A stretch of 64,000 nt of DNA from Rhizobiaceae bacterium (lineage in GTDB: Bacteria; Pseudomonadota; Alphaproteobacteria; Rhizobiales; Rhizobiaceae): positions 62,001-126,000 of the forward strand of contig JAHBYU010000005.1 in NCBI GenBank assembly GCA_019635775.1, given 5' to 3'. A program made the translations under genes and the position numbers. Below, piece after piece: positions 13,315 through 63,963 of this stretch. Within the stretch, counting starts at the first letter, position 1. Every line of letters starts with the position of its first letter. Below the pieces are notes generated by a model that searched no databases, was not told where the DNA came from, and was given only the letters and a program-made list of their open reading frames with translations.

Positions 13315-14478
13315 TCAGGAAACGCGTGAACCGGTTTCATCAAGCAGGACGCAGCCGGCCGGGTCGAAGCCGATCTCTATGGCCTCTCCCTCCGGGATCA
13401 TCTTGCCGACAAGCTGGCTATTCGCTCGGATAACGGTCTGCTCGCCAATGTCGATTTCGTAGATGACATTTCCGCCGAGATAGGAAGCGGAGATGACGCG
13501 CCCGGACAACCGGTTTTCAATACCGGCGCCGACCTGCACCTTCTGCGGCCTGAGAACGATGGTGATGTCCGTTCCGGTCGAAAGGGGCCGCGGGGAGACC
13601 ACGCTGACCCTCTGCCCGGCCTTGAGCGCGACAGTCGCGTTCTGTCCGTCGCTTGCGGTCACGCTGCCGGCAAGCAGGTTCGCCTTGCCGAGAAAGTCTG
13701 CAACGAAGGAAGTCCTGGGCGTTTCGTAAACTTCTTCAGGGGTGCCGATCTGCTCCATCATTCCGGCGTTCATGACCACGATCTGGTCGGACATCGACAG
13801 GGCTTCTTCCTGGTCATGCGTAACGAAGATTGCGGTGATGCCGGTTTCCTTCTGGATCTTCTTGATCTCGACCCGCATCTCCTCACGCATGTTGGCGTCG
13901 AGTGCCGAAAGCGGCTCGTCGAGCAGCAGCACTTCAGGCTCGAAGACGATGGCGCGCGCAAGCGCGATACGCTGCTGCTGCCCACCTGACAATTGCGACG
14001 GCAGCTTCTTCTCGCTGCCTGGAAGCCGAACCATCTCGAGCGCCTTGCCGACGCGGCGCGTGATCTCGGGCTTGGGAACGTTTCTGTATTTCAGCCCGAA
14101 AGCGACATTGTCGAAGACGCTCTTGTGGGGAAACAGCGCATAGCTCTGGAAGACCAGTCCGATGTTGCGCTTGTAGATGGGGATGTCGTCCACCCGGCGT
14201 CCGCCGATGGATATCTGGCCGCGGGATATGTCGACAAGGCCGGCAATGGAACGCAGGATCGTCGTCTTGCCGCAACCGGACGGGCCCAGAAGGGTCACGA
14301 AGCTGCCGCGCGGGATCGCCAGCGAAAAATCGCGGACCGCGACAAACTTTCCATAGGCGATGTCGATGTTACGGAATTCGACGGCAGGGCGCTCATAGCC
14401 CGTGCCGGCGTTCGCCTGCGACGTCCCGGTCGACTCCGACCGGGACGTTATGACTGGGCTCACAGCAGTGTCAGGCAC
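13315..14478 (-). CDS. Spermidine/putrescine-type ABC ATPase (PotA-like)
   Basis: A cytoplasmic ATPase of about 387 residues. Walker A GPSGCGKTT, Q-loop LVFQSYALFPH, signature LSGGQQQR, Walker B LLLDEPLSALD, and a C-terminal TOBE domain. It is the last gene of a four-gene operon read on the minus strand. The start is uncertain: GTG at 14478 overlaps the binding-protein stop by 8 bases and GTG at 14463 lies just after it. The frame is open upstream to 14547, but that part would be inside the previous gene. Family members import polyamines, opines, iron or amino-acid derivatives. Confidence 0.9.
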   Translation of the reverse strand: MPDTAVSPVITSRSESTGTSQANAGTGYERPAVEFRNIDIAYGKFVAVRDFSLAIPRGSFVTLLGPSGCGKTTILRSIAGLVDISRGQISIGGRRVDDIPIYKRNIGLVFQSYALFPHKSVFDNVAFGLKYRNVPKPEITRRVGKALEMVRLPGSEKKLPSQLSGGQQQRIALARAIVFEPEVLLLDEPLSALDANMREEMRVEIKKIQKETGITAIFVTHDQEEALSMSDQIVVMNAGMMEQIGTPEEVYETPRTSFVADFLGKANLLAGSVTASDGQNATVALKAGQRVSVVSPRPLSTGTDITIVLRPQKVQVGAGIENRLSGRVISASYLGGNVIYEIDIGEQTVIRANSQLVGKMIPEGEAIEIGFDPAGCVLLDETGSRVS

Positions 14479-21565: not shown

Positions 21566-23191
21566 CTATGCACGTGCAGGCGTATTTCGAAATGGCGTGC
21601 CGTCAAGCGCCGCGGCCATGAGGGACTTCGTGTAGTCCTCGCGGGGTGAATCGAAGATCGCATCGGTGGGGCCTTCCTCCACGAGGCGTCCGGCCCGCAT
21701 GACGATGATGTAGTCTGCCATGGCACGCACCACGGCGAGATCGTGGCTGATGAACAGATAGGACAGGCCATGTGCTGACTGCAGGTCGCGCAGCAAATCG
21801 ACGATCTGCTTCTGCACTGAACGATCGAGCGCCGAGGTCGGTTCGTCGAGCACCACGACGCCGGGTTTGAGGATCATGGCGCGCGCAATCGCTATGCGCT
21901 GGCGTTGTCCACCGGAGAATTCGTGCGGATACCTGTTTGCCACCGCCGGATCGAGGCCGACCTCGCGCAAGACCTCGCTTGCTCTTAGATCGCGTTCGTG
22001 GGCGGGCATCTTCGGCATGTGCACCCTCAGCCCCTCCGTGACGATCTGGCCGACGGTCATGCGCGGCGAAAGCGATCCGAACGGATCCTGGAACACGAGC
22101 TGCAACCGTTTGCGCAATGGCCGCATATGATTCTTGTCGGCATCGCTGATGTCGCGCTCCTCGAAGCGGATTGTTCCCCTGCTTGGTACAAGCCGCAGGA
22201 GGGCGCGTCCCAGGGTCGATTTTCCAGAGCCGGATTCCCCGACGATGCCGATCGTCTGCCCCCGACGCAAGGAGACAGAAGCGTTGGCCACCGCACGCAA
22301 CTCGTCGACGGATCGAGAGAACCAGCCGCCTCCAATGCGGAAGGTGACATTGACGTCACGCCCTTCCAGCAGGGGCGGCGAATCCGGCGGGGGAGGAGTC
22401 TTTCGGCCGGTTGGTTGAGCGGCGAGTAACATCCTGGTGTAGGGATGGGAGGGATTGGCGAAAAGCGAACCTGTATGGTCTTGCTCGACAACCTCGCCTG
22501 CGCGCATGACATAGACCCGGTCCGCGAACCGGCGGACGATACCCAGATCGTGCGTGATGAAGACGATCGCCATGCCGAGCTTGCTTTGCAAGTCGGCAAG
22601 CAGCGTCAGGATTTGAGCCTGAATGGTTACGTCCAGTGCGGTCGTGGGTTCGTCCGCGATCAGCACGTCGGGCTCGTTGGCCAGAGCCATCGCGATCATC
22701 ACCCGCTGGCGCTGCCCGCCTGAAAGTTCGTGCGGGTAGGAATCGATCCTGCGCCCCGGATCGGGAATGCCGACCAGTTCCAGCAATTCGATTGCGCGTG
22801 CGCGTGCTGCCCTCGCAGCGAGGCCCCGGTGATGGACCATCGGCTCCACCAGTTGCCGCCCGATCCGGTAGAGCGGATCAAGCGAAGTCATGGGCTCCTG
22901 AAAAATCATCGTGATCTTGCTACCCCGGATGCGGTTGAGGCCGCTTTCGCCGAGGCCGATCAGTTCCTGTCCACGATAGCTGGCCGAACCGCTTGCCCGG
23001 CCGTTGGCGGCGAGCAGGCCCATGATGGCCATCATGGCCTGGCTCTTGCCGGAGCCGGATTCGCCGACGATGGCCACGGTCTCGTTCGATCGCAAGTCGA
23101 GGTCGATCCCCTTGACGGCTTCCACAACGCCGTCATTCGTGGAGAACTCCACGCGAAGGTTCCGAACCTTGAGAAGGCTTTGCTTCTCCAT
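21566..23191 (-). CDS. Oligopeptide ABC transporter, fused ATPase (OppD-OppF like)
   Basis: A 541-residue protein with two nucleotide-binding domains. The first has [17 protein letters not shown] and [10 protein letters not shown]. The second has [17 protein letters not shown] and [10 protein letters not shown]. The first Walker A ends in Gln where Ser/Thr-Thr is usual (GKSQ). It is the last gene of an operon that runs binding protein, OppB, OppC, OppDF on the minus strand, and it begins 2 bases after the OppC stop. It powers uptake of peptides or a peptide-like compound. Confidence 0.93.
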
Positions 23192-45358: not shown

Positions 45359-46186
45359 TCAGTTGGCGAAAGCAGGTTCGCGGACCGGAGCCGGATTGAA
45401 CAGTGGTTCGAGCGTCTCGATCGATGTCGATGTCGACGCTTCAGAGAATTTTTCCCCGGCCCCATAGATGTCGCGGGCGGCGCGGGTGGTGAGATCTTGG
45501 GGGCTGCCGTCAAACACGACGCGGCCGTCGCGCATGCCGATCACGCGGTCGCAGTAGCGCCGTGCCGTATCGAGCGTGTGCAGGTTGCAGACGATCATGC
45601 GGCCGTCCTCATCGTGGATGCGGCGCAGCGTGTCCATCACGACCTGCGCGTTCATCGGATCGAGGGACGCGATCGGTTCGTCGGCCAGGATGATGCGCGG
45701 ATCCTGCATCAGGGCGCGGGCGATCGCGACGCGCTGCTGCTGCCCGCCCGAGAGTGCCTCGACCCGTTTGGGCGCATGGTCCGCGATCCCAAGGCGGTCC
45801 AGAATGTCGATCGCTTGGTTGATGTCGGCTGTCGGGAAAAGGTTGAGCATCGTCGCGACAGTGGAGCGGCGATTGAGCGTCCCGTGCAGAACGTTCGAGA
45901 CGACGTCGAGGCGCGGGACAAGATTGAACTGCTGGAAGATCATGGCGCAATCGCGATGCCACGAACGCAGCGCTGCCCCGCGCAGTGCCGACACTTCTCT
46001 GCCGTCAAAGAGGATCGATCCTTCAGAGGGGTCGACCAGACGGTTGATCATGCGCAGCAACGTCGACTTGCCGGCGCCGGAGCGTCCGATGATCCCGACC
46101 ATCTGGCCCGAGGGGATTTCGAGCGCGACGCGGTCAACGGCGGTGTTCCTGCCGAAACGGCGCGTCACGTCGCGGATGTGCAGCAT
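45359..46186 (-). CDS. phnC: Phosphonate/phosphate ABC ATPase (PhnC/PhoC-like)
   Basis: A 275-residue ATPase. Walker [11 protein letters not shown]-loop [21 protein letters not shown], signature LSGGQQQR, Walker [12 protein letters not shown]. The [18 protein letters not shown] region is diagnostic of PhnC. First gene of the operon PhnC, PhnD, PhnE1, PhnE2 and possibly the acetyltransferase. No C-P lyase or phosphonatase genes are in the window, so it may import phosphate, phosphite or phosphonates, as PhoCDET of S. meliloti does. Confidence 0.94.
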
Positions 46187-55843: not shown

Positions 55844-58543
55844 GTGGTGAACGACGGCACGCCGATAAATCGCCAGACTGCCCAGCCGGCGGCAACGCCG
55901 ATGATGGAGCAGTATGTGGAGATCAAGGCTGCGAACCCGGATTCGCTGCTGTTCTACCGCATGGGCGACTTCTACGAGCTGTTCTTCGAGGATGCGGAGA
56001 AGGCCAGCAAGGCGCTCGGCATCGTGCTGACCAGGCGCGGCAAGCATCTCGGGCAGGACATCCCCATGTGCGGCGTGCCGGTGCATGCCGCCGACGACTA
56101 TCTGCAGAAGCTGATCGCGCAGGGCTTCCGCGTCGCTGTGTGCGAACAGGTCGAGGACCCGGCCGAAGCCAGGAAGCGCGGCTCGAAATCGGTCGTCAGG
56201 CGCGACGTAGTACGCCTCGTGACGCCCGGCACCATCACCGAGGAGAAGCTGCTGGCGCCGTCGGAGTCGAGCTTCCTGATGGCGCTGGGACGGGTGAAGG
56301 GCGGCGAGAACTCCTATGCGCTGGCGTGGACGGAAATCTCGACCGGCGCGTTTCGTGTCGCTGAGACGAATGCCGAGCGGCTGCTGTCCGACGTGCTGCG
56401 GGTCGATCCGAAGGAGCTGATCGTCGCCGACACGGTGTTCCATGACGAGGAACTGCGCGGTGTATTCGATGTGCTGGGGCGCGTGGTGAGCCCGCAGCCG
56501 TCGCAACTTTTCGATTCCTCGGCTGCGGCAGGCCGCATCGCGCGCTTCTACGAAATCGCCACGCCCGACAGTTTCGGCAGTTTCGGCCGTGCGGAACTGG
56601 CGGCGATCTCCGCGGTCATCGCCTATGTCGAGAAGACGCAGATCTCCGAACGGCCACCGCTCGATTTTCCGCAGCGCGAGGAGAATGGCGCGACGCTGTT
56701 CATCGATCCGGCGACGCGCGCCAATCTCGAACTGATGAAGACGCTGTCGGGCAGCCGCGAAGGCTCGCTTTTCCGCGCCATCGACAGGACGGTGACCGGC
56801 GGCGGCGCAAGGATGCTGGCCGACCGCCTGACGGCCCCGCTGACCGATCCGGACGCGATCAACAGGCGGCTCGATTCCGTGTCGTTCTTTCTTGCCGAGA
56901 CACGCCTTTGCGAGGCGCTGCGGACGTCGCTGAAAAGCGTAGCCGACATGCCGCGCGCGCTGACGCGGCTGGCGCTCAACCGGGGCGGGCCGCGCGATCT
57001 CGGCGCGTTGCGCTCCGGCTTCTCGGCGGCGCGCGACATCGCCACGTTTTTTTCCGGCTCGCCTCTGCCCGACGAACTCGGCGGGGCGATGCAGGCAATC
57101 GCGCGGCTGCCAGCAGATTTCGCGCTGCATCTCGAGAGAGCGCTTGCCGACGAACTGCCGCTACTGAAGCGAGACGGCGGCTTCCTGCGCGAAGGTTATG
57201 ACGGCGATCTCGACGAAGCGCGCGGATTGCGCGACGAATCGCGGCGCATCATTCTCGGGATGGAACGCGACCTCCAGGAGGAGACCGGGATACGGTCGCT
57301 GAAGATCCGGCATAACAACGTGCTGGGTTACTACATCGAGGTGACGGCGAACCATTCCGCGATCATGACCGGCACGGACGAGGCCAAGGGTCGCTTCATC
57401 CATCGCCAGACGATGGCGAATGCCATGCGTTTCACGACGACGGAACTGGCCGGATTGGAAAGCAGGATCGCGAACGCCGCAGACCGCGCCCTTTCGATAG
57501 AGCTTGCAGCGTTCGAGCGGCTGGTGGGCGAAGCGGTTGCGGCGGCAGACGCGATCCGGGCAGGCGCCGAGGCGCTGAGCGTGCTGGACGTGTCCGCGTC
57601 CCTCGCCTGTCTTGCCTTGGGGGAGGATTACGCCCGGCCGGTGGTGGACGCGAGCCTTACATTTTCGATCGAGGCGGGACGCCATCCGGTGGTGGAGCAG
57701 TCGCTGCGACGTCACGCCGAGGCGCCGTTCGTTGCGAATGATTGCGACCTTTCGCCGGAGAATGGCGCGCGGAACGCGGCGATCTGGCTGCTGACGGGTC
57801 CCAACATGGGCGGCAAGTCGACATTCCTGCGCCAGAATGCGCTGATCGCCATCCTGGCGCAGATGGGCTCCTACGTTCCGGCGCGCGCTGCGCATATCGG
57901 CGTGGTCGACCGGCTGTTCAGCCGCGTCGGCGCTTCGGACGACCTGGCGCGGGGCCGCTCGACCTTCATGGTGGAAATGGTCGAGACGGCGGCCATCCTT
58001 AACCAGGCCGGTGAGCGCAGCCTCGTGATCCTCGACGAGATTGGCCGGGGCACCTCGACTTTCGACGGTCTTTCGATCGCGTGGGCCGCGCTCGAATACC
58101 TGCACGAGCAGAACCGGTGCAGGACCATCTTCGCCACGCACTTCCACGAGATGACGGCCCTGGCCGGAAAGCTGCCGCGCCTCCACAACGTCACCATGCG
58201 GGTGAAGGAATGGGAAGGCGACGTGGTCTTCCTGCACGAGGTGGCCAAGGGCGCGGCGGATCGAAGCTACGGCGTGCAGGTTGCCAGGCTGGCGGGCTTG
58301 CCGGCCGCTGTCGTGGCGCGCGCAAAGGACGTACTGGCGCAACTCGAAAGCGGCGAGACCGCAGGCAAGGCCGAGAAACTGGTCGACGACCTCCCGCTGT
58401 TCTCCGCCGCAATGCGCCGGGAAGCACCGACTGCACCCAAGGCCGATCCCGTGACGCAGGCGCTGGCCGGTATCAATCCGGATGAAATGTCGCCGCGTGA
58501 AGCGCTGGAGGCGTTGTACCGCCTGAAGGGCCTGGGGCGCTAG
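55844..58543 (+). CDS. mutS: DNA mismatch repair protein MutS
   Basis: A protein of about 899 residues that finds base mismatches. The mismatch-binding motif is in [19 protein letters not shown], the ATPase Walker A is GPNMGGKST, and Walker B and signature are RSTFMVEM and [23 protein letters not shown]. The start is GTG at 55844 or 55847 on homology to rhizobial MutS, with GGAAACGGAATCAT upstream; an ATG pair at 55901 is also possible. The frame stays open far upstream to 53603, but that stretch is antisense to maeB. The last 96 bases occur a second time at 61301-61396. Confidence 0.95.
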
Positions 58544-58546
58544 GCA

Positions 58547-58568
58547 CCGGGGCGGGTGGCCGCCCCGG
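58547..58568. terminator. Bidirectional terminator hairpin after mutS
   Basis: A perfect 9-bp stem CCGGGGCGG/CCGCCCCGG with GTGG loop directly follows the mutS stop. The convergent sulfatase reading frame ends 11 bases beyond it. It can end transcripts from both sides. No U-run is present. Confidence 0.6.
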
Positions 58569-58578
58569 CAATGCGGTG

Positions 58579-61092
58579 TTACTCGCTGGACTTGTTGTTG
58601 CGCTGGGCGTCTTCCAGCTTCTTGATATCCGCGGCTGACAATTGCGGCCGGTCAAGCTTGATCGTGAGCTTGTCCAGCTTCGCCGTCAGCGGGAAGGGTG
58701 GCTTATAGTCCGCGTCATTCACGCCGGTCAGCGTGTCGGACCCGATGTCGAAGGCCTCGTCCCATTGCAGGATCATCGGCAGTGTCTTGGCCATCGTCTT
58801 TGTATCCACCTCGGCGCCGTCAATCTTCAAAGTGCCGACGCCCCCACGACCTACGCCCGAGAAGTCGTTGAACGCCAGTGTGCCGGGACCGAGCCCATCG
58901 TACTTGAAATCAAATTCGATGAGATGCTTGCCGGCGGAAAGCGGCTCCGCACCAGTCCACTTCACGCGTTCGAGATCCGCCAGATTCCAGACCCAGACCG
59001 GCTTGCCGTCGAGCAGATAGAAACCATATCCGCCGAACCGGCCGCCCGATGTCAGGATCATGCCGTTGGCGTTGTCCGCAGGCACGTCGATCTCGGCTGT
59101 TACCGTGTAGGAGGTGTTCAGCAGCAGGGGAGAGTCGCCCTGCGGCAGCCCCGTCATCGGAAGGGTGTAGACGAATTCGCTTCGCCCCGCGGTGATGTTG
59201 GGCCGTGGCGCTACGATGCGTGCGGCAACGGAGGCATCGAGCGGGAGAACCTCGTACTTCTTCGCTTCCTCCATGAACTTGGCCTTGAGTTCCGCAACCT
59301 TGTCGGGGTGTTCCGCGGCGATGTCCTTCGTCTGGTTCATGTCGGTGCTGAGATCGTACAGCTGGAATTCCTGATTGTTGAGGGGATCGGGATTTGCCGG
59401 CCCGAATGCTTCCCACGGCGCGCGGTTCACCTTGGTGCTGAGCAGCCAGCCTTCGTCATAGAGCGCCCACTGGCCCATCATCTCGAAATACTGCGTCTTG
59501 TGGCGGCTCGGCGCGTTGGCGTTCGCGGCGTCGAAGGTGTAGGCAAAGCTCGTTCCCTCGATAGGCGACTGCTTGATGCCGTCCACCATTTCAGGCGCAT
59601 TGATGCCCGCCACCTCCAGTATCGTTGGCACGACGTCGATGACATGCATGAACTGGTCGCGCCTGCCGCCCTTGTCGGTGATCTTCGCGGGCTAGGACAC
59701 GGCCATGTTCTGGCGAATGCCGCCCAGCCGGGACGCATTCTGCTTGAACCAGTCGAAGGGGGTGTCGAAGGCCCATGACCAGCCAGCCGACATGTGATTG
59801 TACGTCATCTCGGTTCCCCAGACGTCGTACCATTTCATCTGATCCTCGGCAGGGATCATGTTGACCCCGTTGAAGAACGCCACCTCGTTGGGCGTACCGA
59901 GCGGCCCGCCCTCGGCGATCGTTCCATTGTCGCCGTTGATGTAGATGATGAGGGTGTCCTCGAGCTCGCCAAGGTCCTCCACCGCCTGGATCACGCGTCC
60001 GATCTCGTGGTCCGAATAGGCGGCATAGGCGGCGAAAGTGTTGACCTGCCTGATGAAGAGCTTCTTCTCTATATCGGTCAGCTGGTCCCATGGCTTGATC
60101 ATGTCCGCCGGCCAGGGCGTAAGCGTCGCATCCTGCGGGACAAGGCCCATCTTCTTCTGGTTCGCGAAGATCCTCTCACGCAGCGCCTCGTAACCATCGT
60201 CGAAGAGGTGCATCGCCTCGATCTTGTCCATCCACTCCTTCGTTGGATGATGCGGCGCGTGCGTGGCGCCGGGCGCATATTTCACGAAGAACGGCTTGGA
60301 AGGATTGATCTGGTGCATGTTGCTGATCCAGCCGATGGCGTCGTCCGCCATGCCGGTGACCAGGTTCCACTCCGGCTTGCCGTCGAATGGGTAAATCTGC
60401 GTCGTGTTGCGGAAGAGGTTGGGCTGCCACTGGTTGGCGTCGCCGCCGACGAAGCCGTAGAAATACTCGAAGCCCATGCCGCTCGGCCATTGATCGAACG
60501 GCCCGGACTGGCTCGCCTCGAAGGCCGGCGTGTTGTGATTCTTGCCGAACCAGGAGGTGCTGTAGCCGTTGTCGAGCAGAATCCGCCCGATCGTCGCCTT
60601 GTCTTGCGGGATGATGCTGTTGTAGCCGGGGAAGCCGGTCGACTGCTCAGAGATCACCCCGAACCCGGCCGAATGGTGGTTGCGACCGGTTATCAGCGCG
60701 GCGCGCGTGGGTGAGCAGAGCGCGGTCGAATGGATGTTGGTGTAGCTGAGGCCGGACGCCGCCACACGGTCCATCGCTTCGGTCGGGATGACCCCGCCGA
60801 ACGTGCTGGGAACGCCGAAACCCGCATCGTCCGTGATGATCAGCAGGACGTTGGGCGCTTCTGCCGGTGGCACCACGGTCGGCGCCCACCAGGGCTGCGA
60901 CTGCAGCGCGTCATTCGTGATTTTGCCACCGAATTCGGGAGCGGGCGACGGCAACTGCTTGCCGTCGATGGTGGTCGTGGCGCTGGGCGACCCCAAAGTC
61001 CCCGTTACCTGTTGTGCCGAAGCTGTTCCTGCTCCGGACAAAAGTGCAAGCGTGAGGACGGACGCTCTAGCGAGCCACCGGTTCGTCTTCAT
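58579..61092 (-). pseudogene. Arylsulfatase gene with one in-frame amber codon
   Basis: An 838-codon frame that is whole except for a TAG at 59692-59694. It starts at 61092 with signal peptide MKTNRWLARASVLTLALLSGAGTASA. The metal site Asp pair is in VLLIITDDAGFG, and CSPTRAALITGR (Cys at 126) is the formylglycine modification motif, so the enzyme would be a type I sulfatase. The stop interrupts NMAVS-TAG-PAKITDKGG, where homologues have Trp. The part behind (58579-59691) shows VIDVVPTILEVAGI and the usual C-terminal domain, with no other lesions. The break needs a single G-to-A change. Real nonsense, suppressor or sequencing error cannot be told apart from here. Confidence 0.85.
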
Positions 61093-61240
61093 GACTTCTT
61101 CCCCTGTGCGCGCTAGCTGCATTCACTGCACGGTGAGGCGCATTCCACACATGCAAGCATGCGAATGAGGAAGACTAGACCCCGCAACTGTTGGATGTAA
61201 GTAATTTACGGTAACAAGGCACAGTTCGCGGCAGCTCGAC

Positions 61241-61300
61241 CTAATTTAGCGTCTGCATCTTCCGCAGGAAAAAGCCGTTGCCGAAACGGTTTTAGCAGGT
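61241..61300 (-). repeat. Degenerate copy of the 3' end of the gene at 63544-63963
   Basis: Sixty bases match the last 63 bases of the downstream DUF6636-type gene, in the same orientation, with a 3-base gap and about seven mismatches. On the minus strand it codes FGNGFFLRKMQTLN before a stop, against FGNGFFLSKKMQTLR in the full gene. A stop codon lies further up (TGC TAA). It joins directly to the second mutS tail. Confidence 0.8.
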
Positions 61301-61396
61301 CCCGTGACGCAGGCGCTGGCCGGTATCAATCCGGATGAAATGTCGCCGCGCGAGGAGCTGGAGGCGTTGTACCGCCTGAAGGGCCTGGGCCGGTAA
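61301..61396 (+). repeat. Second copy of the mutS 3' end
   Basis: These 96 bases align without gaps to 58448-58543, the last 32 codons of mutS including the stop. Six bases differ, and five of the six changes are silent (CGT/CGC, GAA/GAG, GGG/GGC, CGC/CGG, TAG/TAA); one gives Ala to Glu. The pattern means that this tail once belonged to a working mutS of a close relative. Confidence 0.9.
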
Positions 61397-61414
61397 GCAT
61401 CTTCTGCGAGCGAC

Positions 61415-61439
61415 AAGGCGACCCCTTCGAGGTCGCCTT
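61415..61439. terminator. Terminator hairpin after the second mutS tail
   Basis: A perfect 9-bp stem AAGGCGACC/GGTCGCCTT with loop CCTTCGA stands 18 bases after the mutS-copy stop and 10 bases before the PepSY gene stop. It is probably the original mutS terminator of the recipient chromosome and ends transcripts from both sides. Confidence 0.65.
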
Positions 61440-61448
61440 ACGCCAGCT

Positions 61449-62849
61449 TCAAGACAAGACGCGTTTCAGGCCCGGCGTGATGCGCAGGAGGGTTGCGTCG
61501 AGAAGCAGCACGACGAGAATGGCCGCGCCGGCCAGCGGGAAAATGATCCCAAGCAACAGGACGACGAGCGCCGCTCCTTTCCAGAACGGCAGGTCGCGAG
61601 GCCTTGGCGGGGCTGCGAGACGGGCTGCGGTTTCCGGCCTGCGCTTCCACCACATAACCAGCCCGGACACCGACACGGTGATGACCGACAGGCAGAAGAG
61701 TGTGTTGAAGATGAGGTTCCAGACACCGAGGTCGCCTTCGTGAAAGGCTATGCCCCAAGCCATCGCCTTTGCGTACGCCGAATAGTCTGCATAACGCACG
61801 TCGGCCAGCACGTTGCCTGAGTACCGGTCGATATGGATCGTTCGGTCGGCCGACGGGTTCGGCCCGTCATTCGACATGCTGTCATGGCTGATCGTCCAGA
61901 CGCCCGTTTCGTCGGTGGGCAGGTTGATCTGGAAACGACCGACGAAGCCGAGGCTCCGGGCGAAGGACGCGACACTGTCGAGCGAGACATCGCCCTCGAT
62001 CGCATCGATGCCAGCGAGCGATCCGGACTGCGGCAGCGGTGTCTGCTCGAGGCCCCAAGGGACTTCGTGATGTCCGTCATGGTTCATGCTGGCGTGGGTA
62101 GCGTCCGAAAGCGGCGCGCCGAACTTCTCGGCTGGGAACGTGTTCCACGCCTGCACCACCCTCTCGCCCCAGATACCCGCCCAGCTCAGGCCCGAAATCA
62201 GGAAGACGATGAGGAAAACCGATATCCAGAGGCCGAGCGTGCCGTGCAGGGATTTCCAGAAAATCCTGCCATGCGCGGCGAGCCTCGGGATGAGGACAGT
62301 TCGCAAGCCCCCACCGTTTCGCGGCCAATGCAGATAGAGGCCGGTCGCCACCATGATGATGGCGAGGCTGGCCGCCATCTCGATCATGCGGTCGCCGAAG
62401 CTGCCGAGTAGCAGGGTGCCGTGGATCTTGTTCACGAAATCGTACCAGCCCGCTCGCCAGGGAAAGATTTCGAGCACAGCGCCTGTGTATGGATCGACCG
62501 CGACGCCAGTCTTGTCGGCGCCGTCCGCGACAACGAGGACGGCGACGCGGTCGGCAGCGAGTGGCTCGATGTATTGGACGACCCTGTTGCCGGGAACAGA
62601 TGCCTCGGCCGCCGTCTGCAGGGCGCTCGGCGCAAGCGGGTCGGCCTGCGCCGACACGACGGTACGCCCGCTGTCGATGCCGGCGCTCCATGAAATCCAG
62701 AGCATGATCAGGCCGGTCGTTGCCAACATGACAAGAAACGGGATGACGTAGAGTCCGGCATAGAAATGCCAGCGCCAGGCGATGAAGTAGAACTTGTTGA
62801 CGGTGGCGTCCGCCTGCTGGGACTCTGCTTCGAGAGTAATGTTGCTCAT
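61449..62849 (-). CDS. PepSY-associated membrane protein (PiuB-type)
   Basis: A 466-residue inner-membrane protein with four main membrane segments. It begins FYFIAWRWHFYAGLYVIPFLVMLATTGLIML, a classic start of PepSY-TM proteins with conserved His and Arg. Periplasmic PepSY domains lie between the segments (DRVAVLVVADGADKTGVAVDPYTGAVLEIF). The second segment group contains IFWKSLHGTLGLWISVFLIVFLISGLSWAGIWG. Such proteins are iron-regulated and may reduce ferric siderophores. Its start overlaps a small upstream frame (ATGA). Confidence 0.9.
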   Translation of the reverse strand: MSNITLEAESQQADATVNKFYFIAWRWHFYAGLYVIPFLVMLATTGLIMLWISWSAGIDSGRTVVSAQADPLAPSALQTAAEASVPGNRVVQYIEPLAADRVAVLVVADGADKTGVAVDPYTGAVLEIFPWRAGWYDFVNKIHGTLLLGSFGDRMIEMAASLAIIMVATGLYLHWPRNGGGLRTVLIPRLAAHGRIFWKSLHGTLGLWISVFLIVFLISGLSWAGIWGERVVQAWNTFPAEKFGAPLSDATHASMNHDGHHEVPWGLEQTPLPQSGSLAGIDAIEGDVSLDSVASFARSLGFVGRFQINLPTDETGVWTISHDSMSNDGPNPSADRTIHIDRYSGNVLADVRYADYSAYAKAMAWGIAFHEGDLGVWNLIFNTLFCLSVITVSVSGLVMWWKRRPETAARLAAPPRPRDLPFWKGAALVVLLLGIIFPLAGAAILVVLLLDATLLRITPGLKRVLS

Positions 62850-62944
62850 GGATTTGCTCCCGTCTGAACGGGATTAAAGCGGATGGCCGTGAGCATAAGC
62901 GAGTGAGCGGCTGCGAGCGTGCTCGCGCGATGAAAAACAGACAT
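62846..62944 (-). CDS. Possible small coupled peptide upstream of the PepSY gene
   Basis: A 32-residue frame, MSVFHRASTLAAAHSLMLTA..., whose stop overlaps the PepSY protein start by four bases (ATGA). GGGAG lies 6 bases before its ATG. The upstream ribosome site and the coupling suggest that it is translated and may tune the PepSY gene. Its sequence resembles no known protein to me. It is just as likely to be a chance frame, so confidence is modest. Confidence 0.4.
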   Translation of the reverse strand: MSVFHRASTLAAAHSLMLTAIRFNPVQTGANP

Positions 62945-63035
62945 GGATGTCTCCCTTGCATGCCTTGCGGCAGCGAGTGGATTTGAAAGCCGACAGGTGC
63001 GGCTCCGGGTTCGATCGCCGCGACGCGGCGGAAAA

Positions 63036-63428
63036 TCAAATCGACGGGGGAGGGGCGCGGGGACGTCCGGAACGTCGTTCGAGCGCAAAGGTGGGCGGGT
63101 GCGCGTCCAAAACAGAAAATATGCGCGCAGCCGATGCCGAAAGCGGATTGGAAAGCGAATGCGAAGGACGGTTGTCGGAAAGCGCCGACAGGAACATGCC
63201 GCACGAGACAGTGCAGCAATCCGGGAAGATTTTGTGGCCGGAACGGTCCGTATCGCCGCCGGACCGCTCCATGCCGGGCATGCACAGCGGATTGCCGAAG
63301 GCGTCGAGCATCGGAGCGGCCGCCGCAGCTCCGGTTGCGTAAGCCCCGACCAGCGCCTGCATGAAAAGCAAGAGGGTCGCGACGAACGCGATGACCGTGC
63401 CTCTGCGCTTCTGCCCGATGCGTTTCAA
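63036..63428 (-). CDS. DUF2946-like small exported protein
   Basis: A 130-residue protein with a start at TTG (GAGGGAGCTTTC before it) and an N-terminal hydrophobic segment GTVIAFVATLLLFMQALVGAYA. The mature part contains LCMPG, and a Cys pair plus Cys (PDCCTVSCGMF), as in DUF2946 proteins that are found next to PepSY and TonB-dependent receptor genes for metal uptake. It lies about 90 bases upstream of the small coupled frame and likely starts the operon. Confidence 0.7.
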   Translation of the reverse strand: MKRIGQKRRGTVIAFVATLLLFMQALVGAYATGAAAAAPMLDAFGNPLCMPGMERSGGDTDRSGHKIFPDCCTVSCGMFLSALSDNRPSHSLSNPLSASAARIFSVLDAHPPTFALERRSGRPRAPPPSI

Positions 63429-63543
63429 GAAAGCTCCCTCTGCGCTTCTTGTAGCAGGGATCACGGCGACGTAAATCGTGGTGTGCGGCACTTGCCCCGT
63501 TCAAGGGCGACGTGTGCGCTTATGTCTCGCTGACTCGCGGGGG

Positions 63544-63963
63544 CTAGCGAAGCGTCTGCATCTTCTTCGACAGGAAAAAGCCGTTGCCGAAACGGTTTTT
63601 GCAGGTGACCCCATCCGTCGCAACCGAGCAGCTGAAGCCGTGTTTCTGCCACGTGCTGCCATAGCCCAGAACGGGATAGTCCGGGTTCATGACCGTATCG
63701 CCGGCACAAACGCGGTAGGCCGACTTCCGTTCGCCCGACAAGGCAAAGGCGTTGCCCCAGTCGAGATCGCAGTCGGATGGCGGCGCAGGCACGGCGGCCG
63801 CGTTGGTGCGGATGTCGCAGCGCAGTTCAGCGGTTCCTTCCCAGACATCAGCCATGCAGTGGATATTGTCGGAGGGCGTGCGGAAGCCGTCGGCAGATGC
63901 GGACGCGGCAAGCGTGAAACAGCAGCCGGTTGCCGCCAACAGATGGACAAGGAGAGAAGGCAT
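63544..63963 (-). CDS. DUF6636-type secreted protein
   Basis: A 139-residue secreted protein. The signal peptide MPSLLVHLLAATGCCFTLAASASA is followed by DGFRTPSDNIHCMADVW, with further Cys at CDIRT, CDLDWG, VCAGD, CSVATDGVTC. Six Cys suggest disulfides in the periplasm or outside. The C-terminal end FGNGFFLSKKMQTLR is duplicated as a remnant at 61241-61300. GAGGTC precedes the ATG at 63963. Function unknown. Confidence 0.8.
   Translation of the reverse strand: MPSLLVHLLAATGCCFTLAASASADGFRTPSDNIHCMADVWEGTAELRCDIRTNAAAVPAPPSDCDLDWGNAFALSGERKSAYRVCAGDTVMNPDYPVLGYGSTWQKHGFSCSVATDGVTCKNRFGNGFFLSKKMQTLR

What the first reader, a model, noticed from the sequence alone, without database searches (positions are those of the whole stretch)
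61241..61396. Recombination scar: two foreign or displaced gene tails fused head to tail
61241-61300 copies the end of the gene at 63544-63963, and 61301-61396 copies the end of mutS with six changes, five silent. The silent pattern shows that the second mutS tail evolved inside a working gene of another lineage. A simple model: DNA from a donor with the order mutS, sulfatase, DUF6636-type gene recombined at mutS on one side and joined by illegitimate ends on the other. The old mutS tail and its terminator (61415-61439) stayed behind. This dates the sulfatase as an import.
Basis: partly seen in the sequence, partly recalled or inferred. Interest (0 to 1): 0.75.

Follow-up and report, generated by a model that had tools for sequence, protein, structure and literature searches.

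The report
Two rival gene spacers fused together
Between two neighbouring genes this bacterium carries two alternative inserts one after the other, and the seam is made of a leftover end of each neighbour gene; it looks like a readable trace of a rare, known way in which bacteria stitch in DNA from a relative.

Summary
61241-61300 repeats the end of the DUF6636 gene (63544-63963), and 61301-61396 repeats the last 32 codons of mutS with six changes, five silent. The truncated 5' sides of the tails meet at 61300|61301 with the stop codons outermost, so 'head to tail' is wrong.

One new joint explains both repeats. In a congener (G001) mutS and DUF6636 flank a quite different ~1 kb spacer. The window holds two unrelated spacers in tandem: A (sulfatase) and B (PepSY_TM plus a small ORF). 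Their similarity ends at the mutS and DUF6636 stop codons. Fusion of two alleles of one variable spot predicts this; duplication of one locus does not.

A trimmed fragment that closed into a circle (2853 or 2306 bp) and entered by one crossover gives the same product, and spacer B could be the newcomer. The silent bias is modest (P 0.004-0.013). The sulfatase is probably foreign and has an in-frame stop. Among 394 family genomes, a second mutS tail outside two contig-end cases was seen only here. It is a clean example of a known kind of event.

The parts
55847..58543 (+). mutS, complete (899 codons with stop, GTG start as in G001)
   Evidence: ORF frame; codon alignment with relatives; start codons of both
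58448..58543 (+). mutS tail, copy 1 (inside the intact gene)
58544..61240 (.). spacer A: hairpin after mutS, sulfatase gene (-) with one in-frame TAG, upstream region
58579..61122 (-). sulfatase reading frame, split by TAG at 59692-59694
   Evidence: two ORFs in one frame; Pfam Sulfatase on the N-terminal piece, 141 bits; 39 of the 40 other places found have one open frame of 827-961 aa, the fortieth 482 aa
61241..61300 (-). DUF6636 tail, truncated copy (20 codons with stop; one codon fewer than the intact gene; internal TAA)
61300..61301 (.). new joint: truncated 5' sides of both tails meet, one shared base (T)
61301..61396 (+). mutS tail, truncated copy (32 codons with stop)
61397..63543 (.). 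spacer B: hairpin after the second mutS tail, PepSY_TM gene (-), 151-aa ORF (-)
61449..62849 (-). PepSY_TM protein gene
   Evidence: Pfam PF03929, 199 bits
63036..63491 (-). 151-aa ORF, no Pfam or NCBIfam match; a relative is also beside the PepSY_TM gene in G197 and G151
63544..63963 (-). DUF6636 gene, complete; its last 21 codons (63544-63606) match the truncated copy

Best explanation
The place between mutS and the DUF6636 gene is a variable spot where different lineages of this genus carry different small gene sets. Here two such alleles stand in tandem: mutS - spacer A (sulfatase) - DUF6636 tail | mutS tail - spacer B (PepSY_TM and a small ORF) - DUF6636. Shown: both tails, the single joint with one base of overlap, the unrelated spacers, and a third spacer at the same place in a congener. 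Inferred: a fragment from a close relative, broken 96 bp inside the mutS end and 60 bp inside the DUF6636 end, was joined illegitimately (end joining is possible, since the genome has two Ku homologues) and came in through homology at the other side. I think it slightly more likely that the fragment closed into a small circle (2853 bp with A or 2306 bp with B) and entered by one crossover in a shared tail. Neither truncated tail is likely to have a function; they are a scar. As direct repeats they could let the chromosome lose A or B again. The confidence given is for the fusion of two alleles, whichever route made it.
For: One joint accounts for both repeats. After the mutS stop codons the two copies share GCA and agree at 19 of 60 positions in all; before the DUF6636 stops at 13 of 60. 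Local alignments of the 200-nt edges are reached by 17 and 98 of 300 shuffles, and BLASTN of spacer A against B gives nothing better than E 0.72 (which corrects a 4-nt slip). G001 aligns with the window up to the mutS stop and again from 7 nt inside DUF6636 (82% and 81%), with a 1 kb unrelated spacer between. In G002 (87% complete) the spacer is different again, 5.5 kb to the CDP-alcohol transferase gene, without a DUF6636 match. 5 of 6 mutS-tail changes are silent (P 0.004-0.013). Both tails keep their stop in frame. Two Ku homologues. A second mutS tail with E below 0.01 was found, besides the own genome, only in G093 and G222, fragmented assemblies where the extra copy lies at a contig's start.
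Against: No parental allele (mutS-A-DUF6636 or mutS-B-DUF6636) was found; the sets hold one genome per species. The tails are short, so the six changes are weak evidence of divergence in working genes. Polarised with G001 and G003, changes lie on both sides and do not tell which allele is native. The one-base overlap is less than the 3-10 bp found in most one-sided events (PMC3240628, passages). DNA uptake in this organism was not tested.
Confidence: 0.8

Rival explanations
1. One reading: a linear donor piece mutS-sulfatase-DUF6636 recombined by homology in mutS and was joined illegitimately at its DUF6636 end to the recipient's mutS tail (homology-facilitated illegitimate recombination).
For: Same product; described in three competent species and, rarely, in E. 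coli conjugation (PMC3240628, start of abstract, passages). The same logic was proposed for Vibrio immunity arrays with displaced 3' ends (PMC5361080, passages).
Against: Such events generally delete recipient DNA (PMC3240628); here nothing is missing and 96 bp are doubled. In that E. coli study 56 of 60 candidate clones gave a duplication product, ascribed to a trimmed, re-closed molecule entering by one crossover.
Confidence: 0.33
2. The mirror case, also compatible with the fusion: mutS-sulfatase-DUF6636 is native and the piece with PepSY_TM came in.
For: The structure is symmetrical; PepSY_TM had no match at E 1e-60 in G001 and G003 and only a 46% one in G002, while G197 of another genus has 80% with a relative of the small neighbour ORF.
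Against: The sulfatase also looks foreign, so foreignness does not decide.
Confidence: 0.4
3. Tandem duplication of one locus that then lost different genes in each copy.
For: The joint has the geometry of a tandem-duplication joint.
Against: The spacer edges next to both stop codons are unrelated between the copies, and each mutS tail has its own hairpin; this would need replacement of both spacers up to the gene ends.
Confidence: 0.05
4. Site-specific integration of an element at the mutS 3' end, with the tails as attachment sites.
For: A repeated gene end flanking an insert is the usual footprint of such elements (from general knowledge).
Against: No integrase-like ORF was recognised between 58.5 and 64 kb (my reading; family scans covered five of its ORFs); a DUF6636 tail lies at the seam; no credible second mutS tail in other family genomes apart from contig ends.
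Confidence: 0.03
5. Assembly chimera of two strains' alleles.
For: The copies share identical runs of 51 nt (mutS) and 29 nt (DUF6636), and I could not see reads.
Against: The joint itself has one base of overlap, so an overlap or k-mer assembler needs real reads across it; contamination is listed as 1.1% in 36 contigs.
Confidence: 0.07

Closest known systems
Homology-facilitated illegitimate recombination, HFIR (PMC3240628: start of abstract and passages; the original papers of 2002-2003 seen only in reference lists)
   Same: Homology on one side, an illegitimate joint on the other; little or no overlap at the joint is allowed (in the E. coli study none in 3 of 4 clones and 1 nt in the fourth).
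   Different: HFIR generally deletes recipient DNA; here 96 bp of mutS and 60 bp of DUF6636 are doubled.
Single crossover of a trimmed, re-closed molecule (same paper, passages)
   Same: Doubles part of the anchor gene (109-950 bp in the 14 clones sequenced there, 96 bp here) and leaves a truncated copy.
   Different: A plasmid in a laboratory cross; here inferred from one genome.
Immunity-gene arrays of Vibrio T6SS clusters (PMC5361080, passages)
   Same: A new module inserted next to a conserved gene pushes the old 3' remainder downstream.
   Different: There it recurs and is tied to effector-immunity pairs; here one event at mutS.
mutS-rpoS variable region of E. coli (PMC4209514, passages)
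   Same: Mosaic spacer beside mutS with different inserts by lineage.
   Different: Different neighbours and organism; I saw no doubled mutS tail in the passages read.

Membership tests
Homology-facilitated illegitimate recombination | one illegitimate joint with short or no overlap | tested here: met
   1 nt overlap at 61300|61301
Homology-facilitated illegitimate recombination | other end joined by homologous recombination | tested here: inconclusive
   collinear with G001 on both flanks, but no same-species strain to locate a crossover
Homology-facilitated illegitimate recombination | deletion of recipient DNA, generally seen | tested here: not met
   duplication of both gene tails; mutS and DUF6636 are both complete
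Single crossover of a re-closed fragment | partial duplication of the anchor gene with the fragment's two ends fused | tested here: met
   DUF6636 tail joined to mutS tail, both doubled
Single crossover of a re-closed fragment | a circular intermediate existed | not testable with these tools
   the sequence product is the same as for other routes
Site-specific integrative element | integrase gene and a repeated attachment site used more than once | tested here: not met
   no integrase-like ORF recognised (my reading; five ORFs scanned); no credible second tail in relatives apart from contig ends
DUF6636 (Pfam PF20341) | score above the curated cut-off | tested here: met
   77.9 bits, cut-off 27

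The most novel reading that the evidence does not exclude
The locus is a two-allele cassette that can fall back to either parent: recombination between the mutS tails would excise spacer A with the scar, between the DUF6636 tails spacer B, so a population could switch between sulfatase and PepSY_TM alleles at a spot that several lineages use.
Probability: 0.07. Interest if true: 0.45.

Novelty: new member of a known kind. Interest (0 to 1): 0.3.

Why it matters
Illegitimate joints have been proposed to account for much of the small-scale variation among E. coli genomes (PMC2884548, passages), but natural cases seldom show how they arose. Here both leftover gene ends survive, so the joint can be read to the base and the two parent alleles can be predicted. 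That makes it a useful worked example, and it marks the mutS-DUF6636 spacer as a variable spot in this genus. It does not reveal a new system.

Tried and rejected
Tandem duplication of one locus: rejected, as the spacers differ right up to the stop codons. Site-specific integration: no integrase-like ORF recognised, no credible recurrence. Reading the direction of transfer from the tails: failed; G001 matches the own mutS tail at 75 and the scar tail at 73 of 97 positions, G003 at 77 and 76. Looking for a foreign tract along mutS: own-G001 identity runs from 73 to 92% in 60-codon windows without a clear step at the 3' end; with outgroups at this distance a tract from a sister strain would be invisible. 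DUF6636 in print: 0 papers. A search for Sinorhizobium, end joining and foreign DNA gave 4 papers of no use here, listing only.

Errors of mine: the mutS query was out of frame (stops written as X), so its values there are not used; one search repeats the check in frame. In one search the mutS third-position GC value is out of frame and not used, and the edge before the first DUF6636 stop was set 4 nt too far; one search gives the right register (13 of 60 instead of 25%, 98 instead of 96 shuffles), with the same conclusion. In one search the printed translation of the DUF6636 scar was cut short of its stop and is replaced. 'DUF2946' in my scripts and notes is a name from memory; two library scans gave no family, so the report says 151-aa ORF. 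In the sulfatase tree G051 appears in two clades, so old paralogues with loss remain possible beside transfer.

Full report
What is there. Two direct repeats overlap at one seam. The last 96 bases of mutS (58448-58543) recur at 61301-61396 with six changes, and the last codons of the DUF6636 gene (63544-63606) recur at 61241-61300. The mutS copies are on the + strand, the DUF6636 copies on the - strand. The seam therefore joins the two truncated 5' sides, with both stop codons outermost and one base of overlap. Apart from these two, the only direct-repeat family of 36 nt or more found in the 64 kb window (14-nt seed) has copies 79 and 82% alike and lies elsewhere.

What it means. In order, the region reads mutS, spacer A with a sulfatase gene, DUF6636 tail, seam, mutS tail, spacer B with a PepSY_TM gene and a 151-aa ORF, DUF6636. 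A single new joint turns two ordinary alleles (mutS-A-DUF6636 and mutS-B-DUF6636) into this. The test against a plain tandem duplication is what lies just outside the doubled tails. After the mutS stop codons the copies share three bases and agree at 19 of 60 positions in all; before the DUF6636 stops they agree at 13 of 60. Local alignments of 200-nt edges are reached by 17 and 98 of 300 shuffles, and spacer A (2697 nt) against B (2147 nt) gives no BLASTN match better than E 0.72. Each mutS copy has its own hairpin (-24.7 and -20.3 kcal/mol, z -3.4 and -3.3). So the two spacers were already different alleles when they were fused.

Relatives. The flanks are collinear with the window at 82% and 81% identity, and homology breaks at the mutS stop and within 7 nt of the DUF6636 stop. 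Between them lies about 1 kb with a RES-domain gene (72 bits) and a gene with a weak Xre/MbcA/ParS match (23.4 bits, just under the cut-off of 24.5); its best BLASTN matches to A and B have E 0.34 and 0.94. In G002 (87% complete) the next shared gene after mutS, the CDP-alcohol transferase gene, comes after 5.5 kb of other genes, and no DUF6636 match was found in that genome. In G003 none of the five shared downstream genes lies in the 9.7 kb after mutS, and its best DUF6636 relative, 45% identical, is on another contig. The mutS-DUF6636 spacer is thus a variable spot; that rests on this genome and three congeners.

How often. The last 38 residues of MutS were searched in 394 genomes of the family, drawn evenly from a larger group: 390 matched at E 1, 4 did not. 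The 56 genomes (own included) that I picked by eye from that table as having two or more matches were searched again. Besides the own genome, a second match with E below 0.01 occurred in two, G093 and G222 (about 440 and 530 contigs), where the extra copy lies within the first 520 bases of a contig; I take these to be contigs that begin inside mutS. The remaining second matches have E of 0.0129 or worse and look like chance. The DUF6636 protein has one match in the own genome; the short scar copy was not reported there.

Silent changes. Five of six changes in the mutS tail are silent. Six random changes in that stretch give five or more silent ones in 0.4 to 1.3% of trials, depending on the transition bias (20,000 trials for each of three settings). 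This favours divergence inside working genes but is not proof, since the intact copy also evolves under constraint. Polarised with G001 and G003, the amino-acid change and the TAA stop are new in the scar, one silent change is new in the intact gene, and three are unclear. The DUF6636 scar keeps its stop in frame and lacks one codon, as a working gene could, but also has an internal TAA, which presumably arose after it lost its function.

Is the sulfatase foreign? Its DNA is 80% identical to a copy in G051, of another family, whose mutS is 71% identical to this one; the congener G002 has 79% in mutS and 76% in its best sulfatase, which lies on another contig. In 297 genomes of the order, 34 had a match at E 1e-150 or better, and of those only the own genome and G154 are from its family; G002, G018 and G022 of the family also have relatives of it. 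In a tree of 14 rows the own gene groups with G051a and G576 (100/99; with G051a alone 81/77), while G002 and G018 sit in another clade with the second copy of G051 (100/97). Transfer is the simplest reading; paralogy with loss is not excluded. The reading frame is split by one TAG; the gene is broken here or the base is an error. Spacer B also looks acquired: PepSY_TM was not matched in G001 or G003 at E 1e-60, the G002 match is 46% identical, and the best are 80 and 76% in two other genera of the family, where a relative of the small ORF is beside it (45 and 29% identity). In those two genomes it is on another contig than mutS (G197) or 2.6 Mb away (G151).

Mechanism. Two routes fit. (1) One-sided event on a linear donor: homology at one end, an illegitimate joint at the other. 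This is known from competent bacteria and as a rare event in E. coli conjugation; it generally deletes recipient DNA and mostly shows 3 to 10 bp of overlap, although 3 of 4 E. coli clones had none and one had 1 nt (PMC3240628, passages). (2) A broken fragment closes on itself and enters by a single crossover. In that study 56 of 60 candidate clones gave a duplication product by PCR; 14 were sequenced and had 109-950 bp of the anchor doubled, which the authors ascribed to a circular molecule that had lost part of the anchor. Here nothing is deleted and 96 and 60 bp are doubled, so I lean to route 2 (circle of 2853 bp if A came in, 2306 bp if B; the repeat spacings), with route 1 close behind. 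Two Ku homologues (147 and 113 bits) make end joining possible. Which spacer is native cannot be told from what is held.

Place among known things. Displacement of old 3' ends by incoming modules has been proposed for Vibrio effector-immunity loci (PMC5361080, passages); homology-assisted illegitimate recombination has been proposed for sites that carry one of two alternative segments in E. coli genomes (PMC2884548, passages); transformation can also make merodiploids by unequal crossing-over (PMC3784515, passages); and the spacer beside mutS is a known mosaic region in E. coli (PMC4209514, passages). This is a clean natural case of a known kind of event.

Noticed in passing
59692-59694: One in-frame TAG splits the sulfatase reading frame (58579-61122, - strand) that is open in 39 of 40 other places found: a broken gene or a sequencing error.
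   Followed up: partly
L033:7394-8317: In the congener G001 the same mutS-DUF6636 spot holds a RES-domain gene with a small partner that weakly matches Xre/MbcA/ParS, the layout of a toxin-antitoxin pair.
   Followed up: partly
61449-63491: PepSY_TM gene and a 151-aa ORF without any family match form a pair; relatives of both are also side by side in G197 and G151.
   Followed up: partly
L109, L110: The own genome has two Ku homologues on different contigs.
   Followed up: no
61275-61289 and 63581-63595: Both DUF6636 tails contain the same terminator-like hairpin with a short T-rich tail inside coding sequence (- strand).
   Followed up: no
13951-13989, 21878-21916, 45713-45751: A 39-nt stretch recurs: two further copies are 79 and 82% identical to the first.
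   Followed up: no
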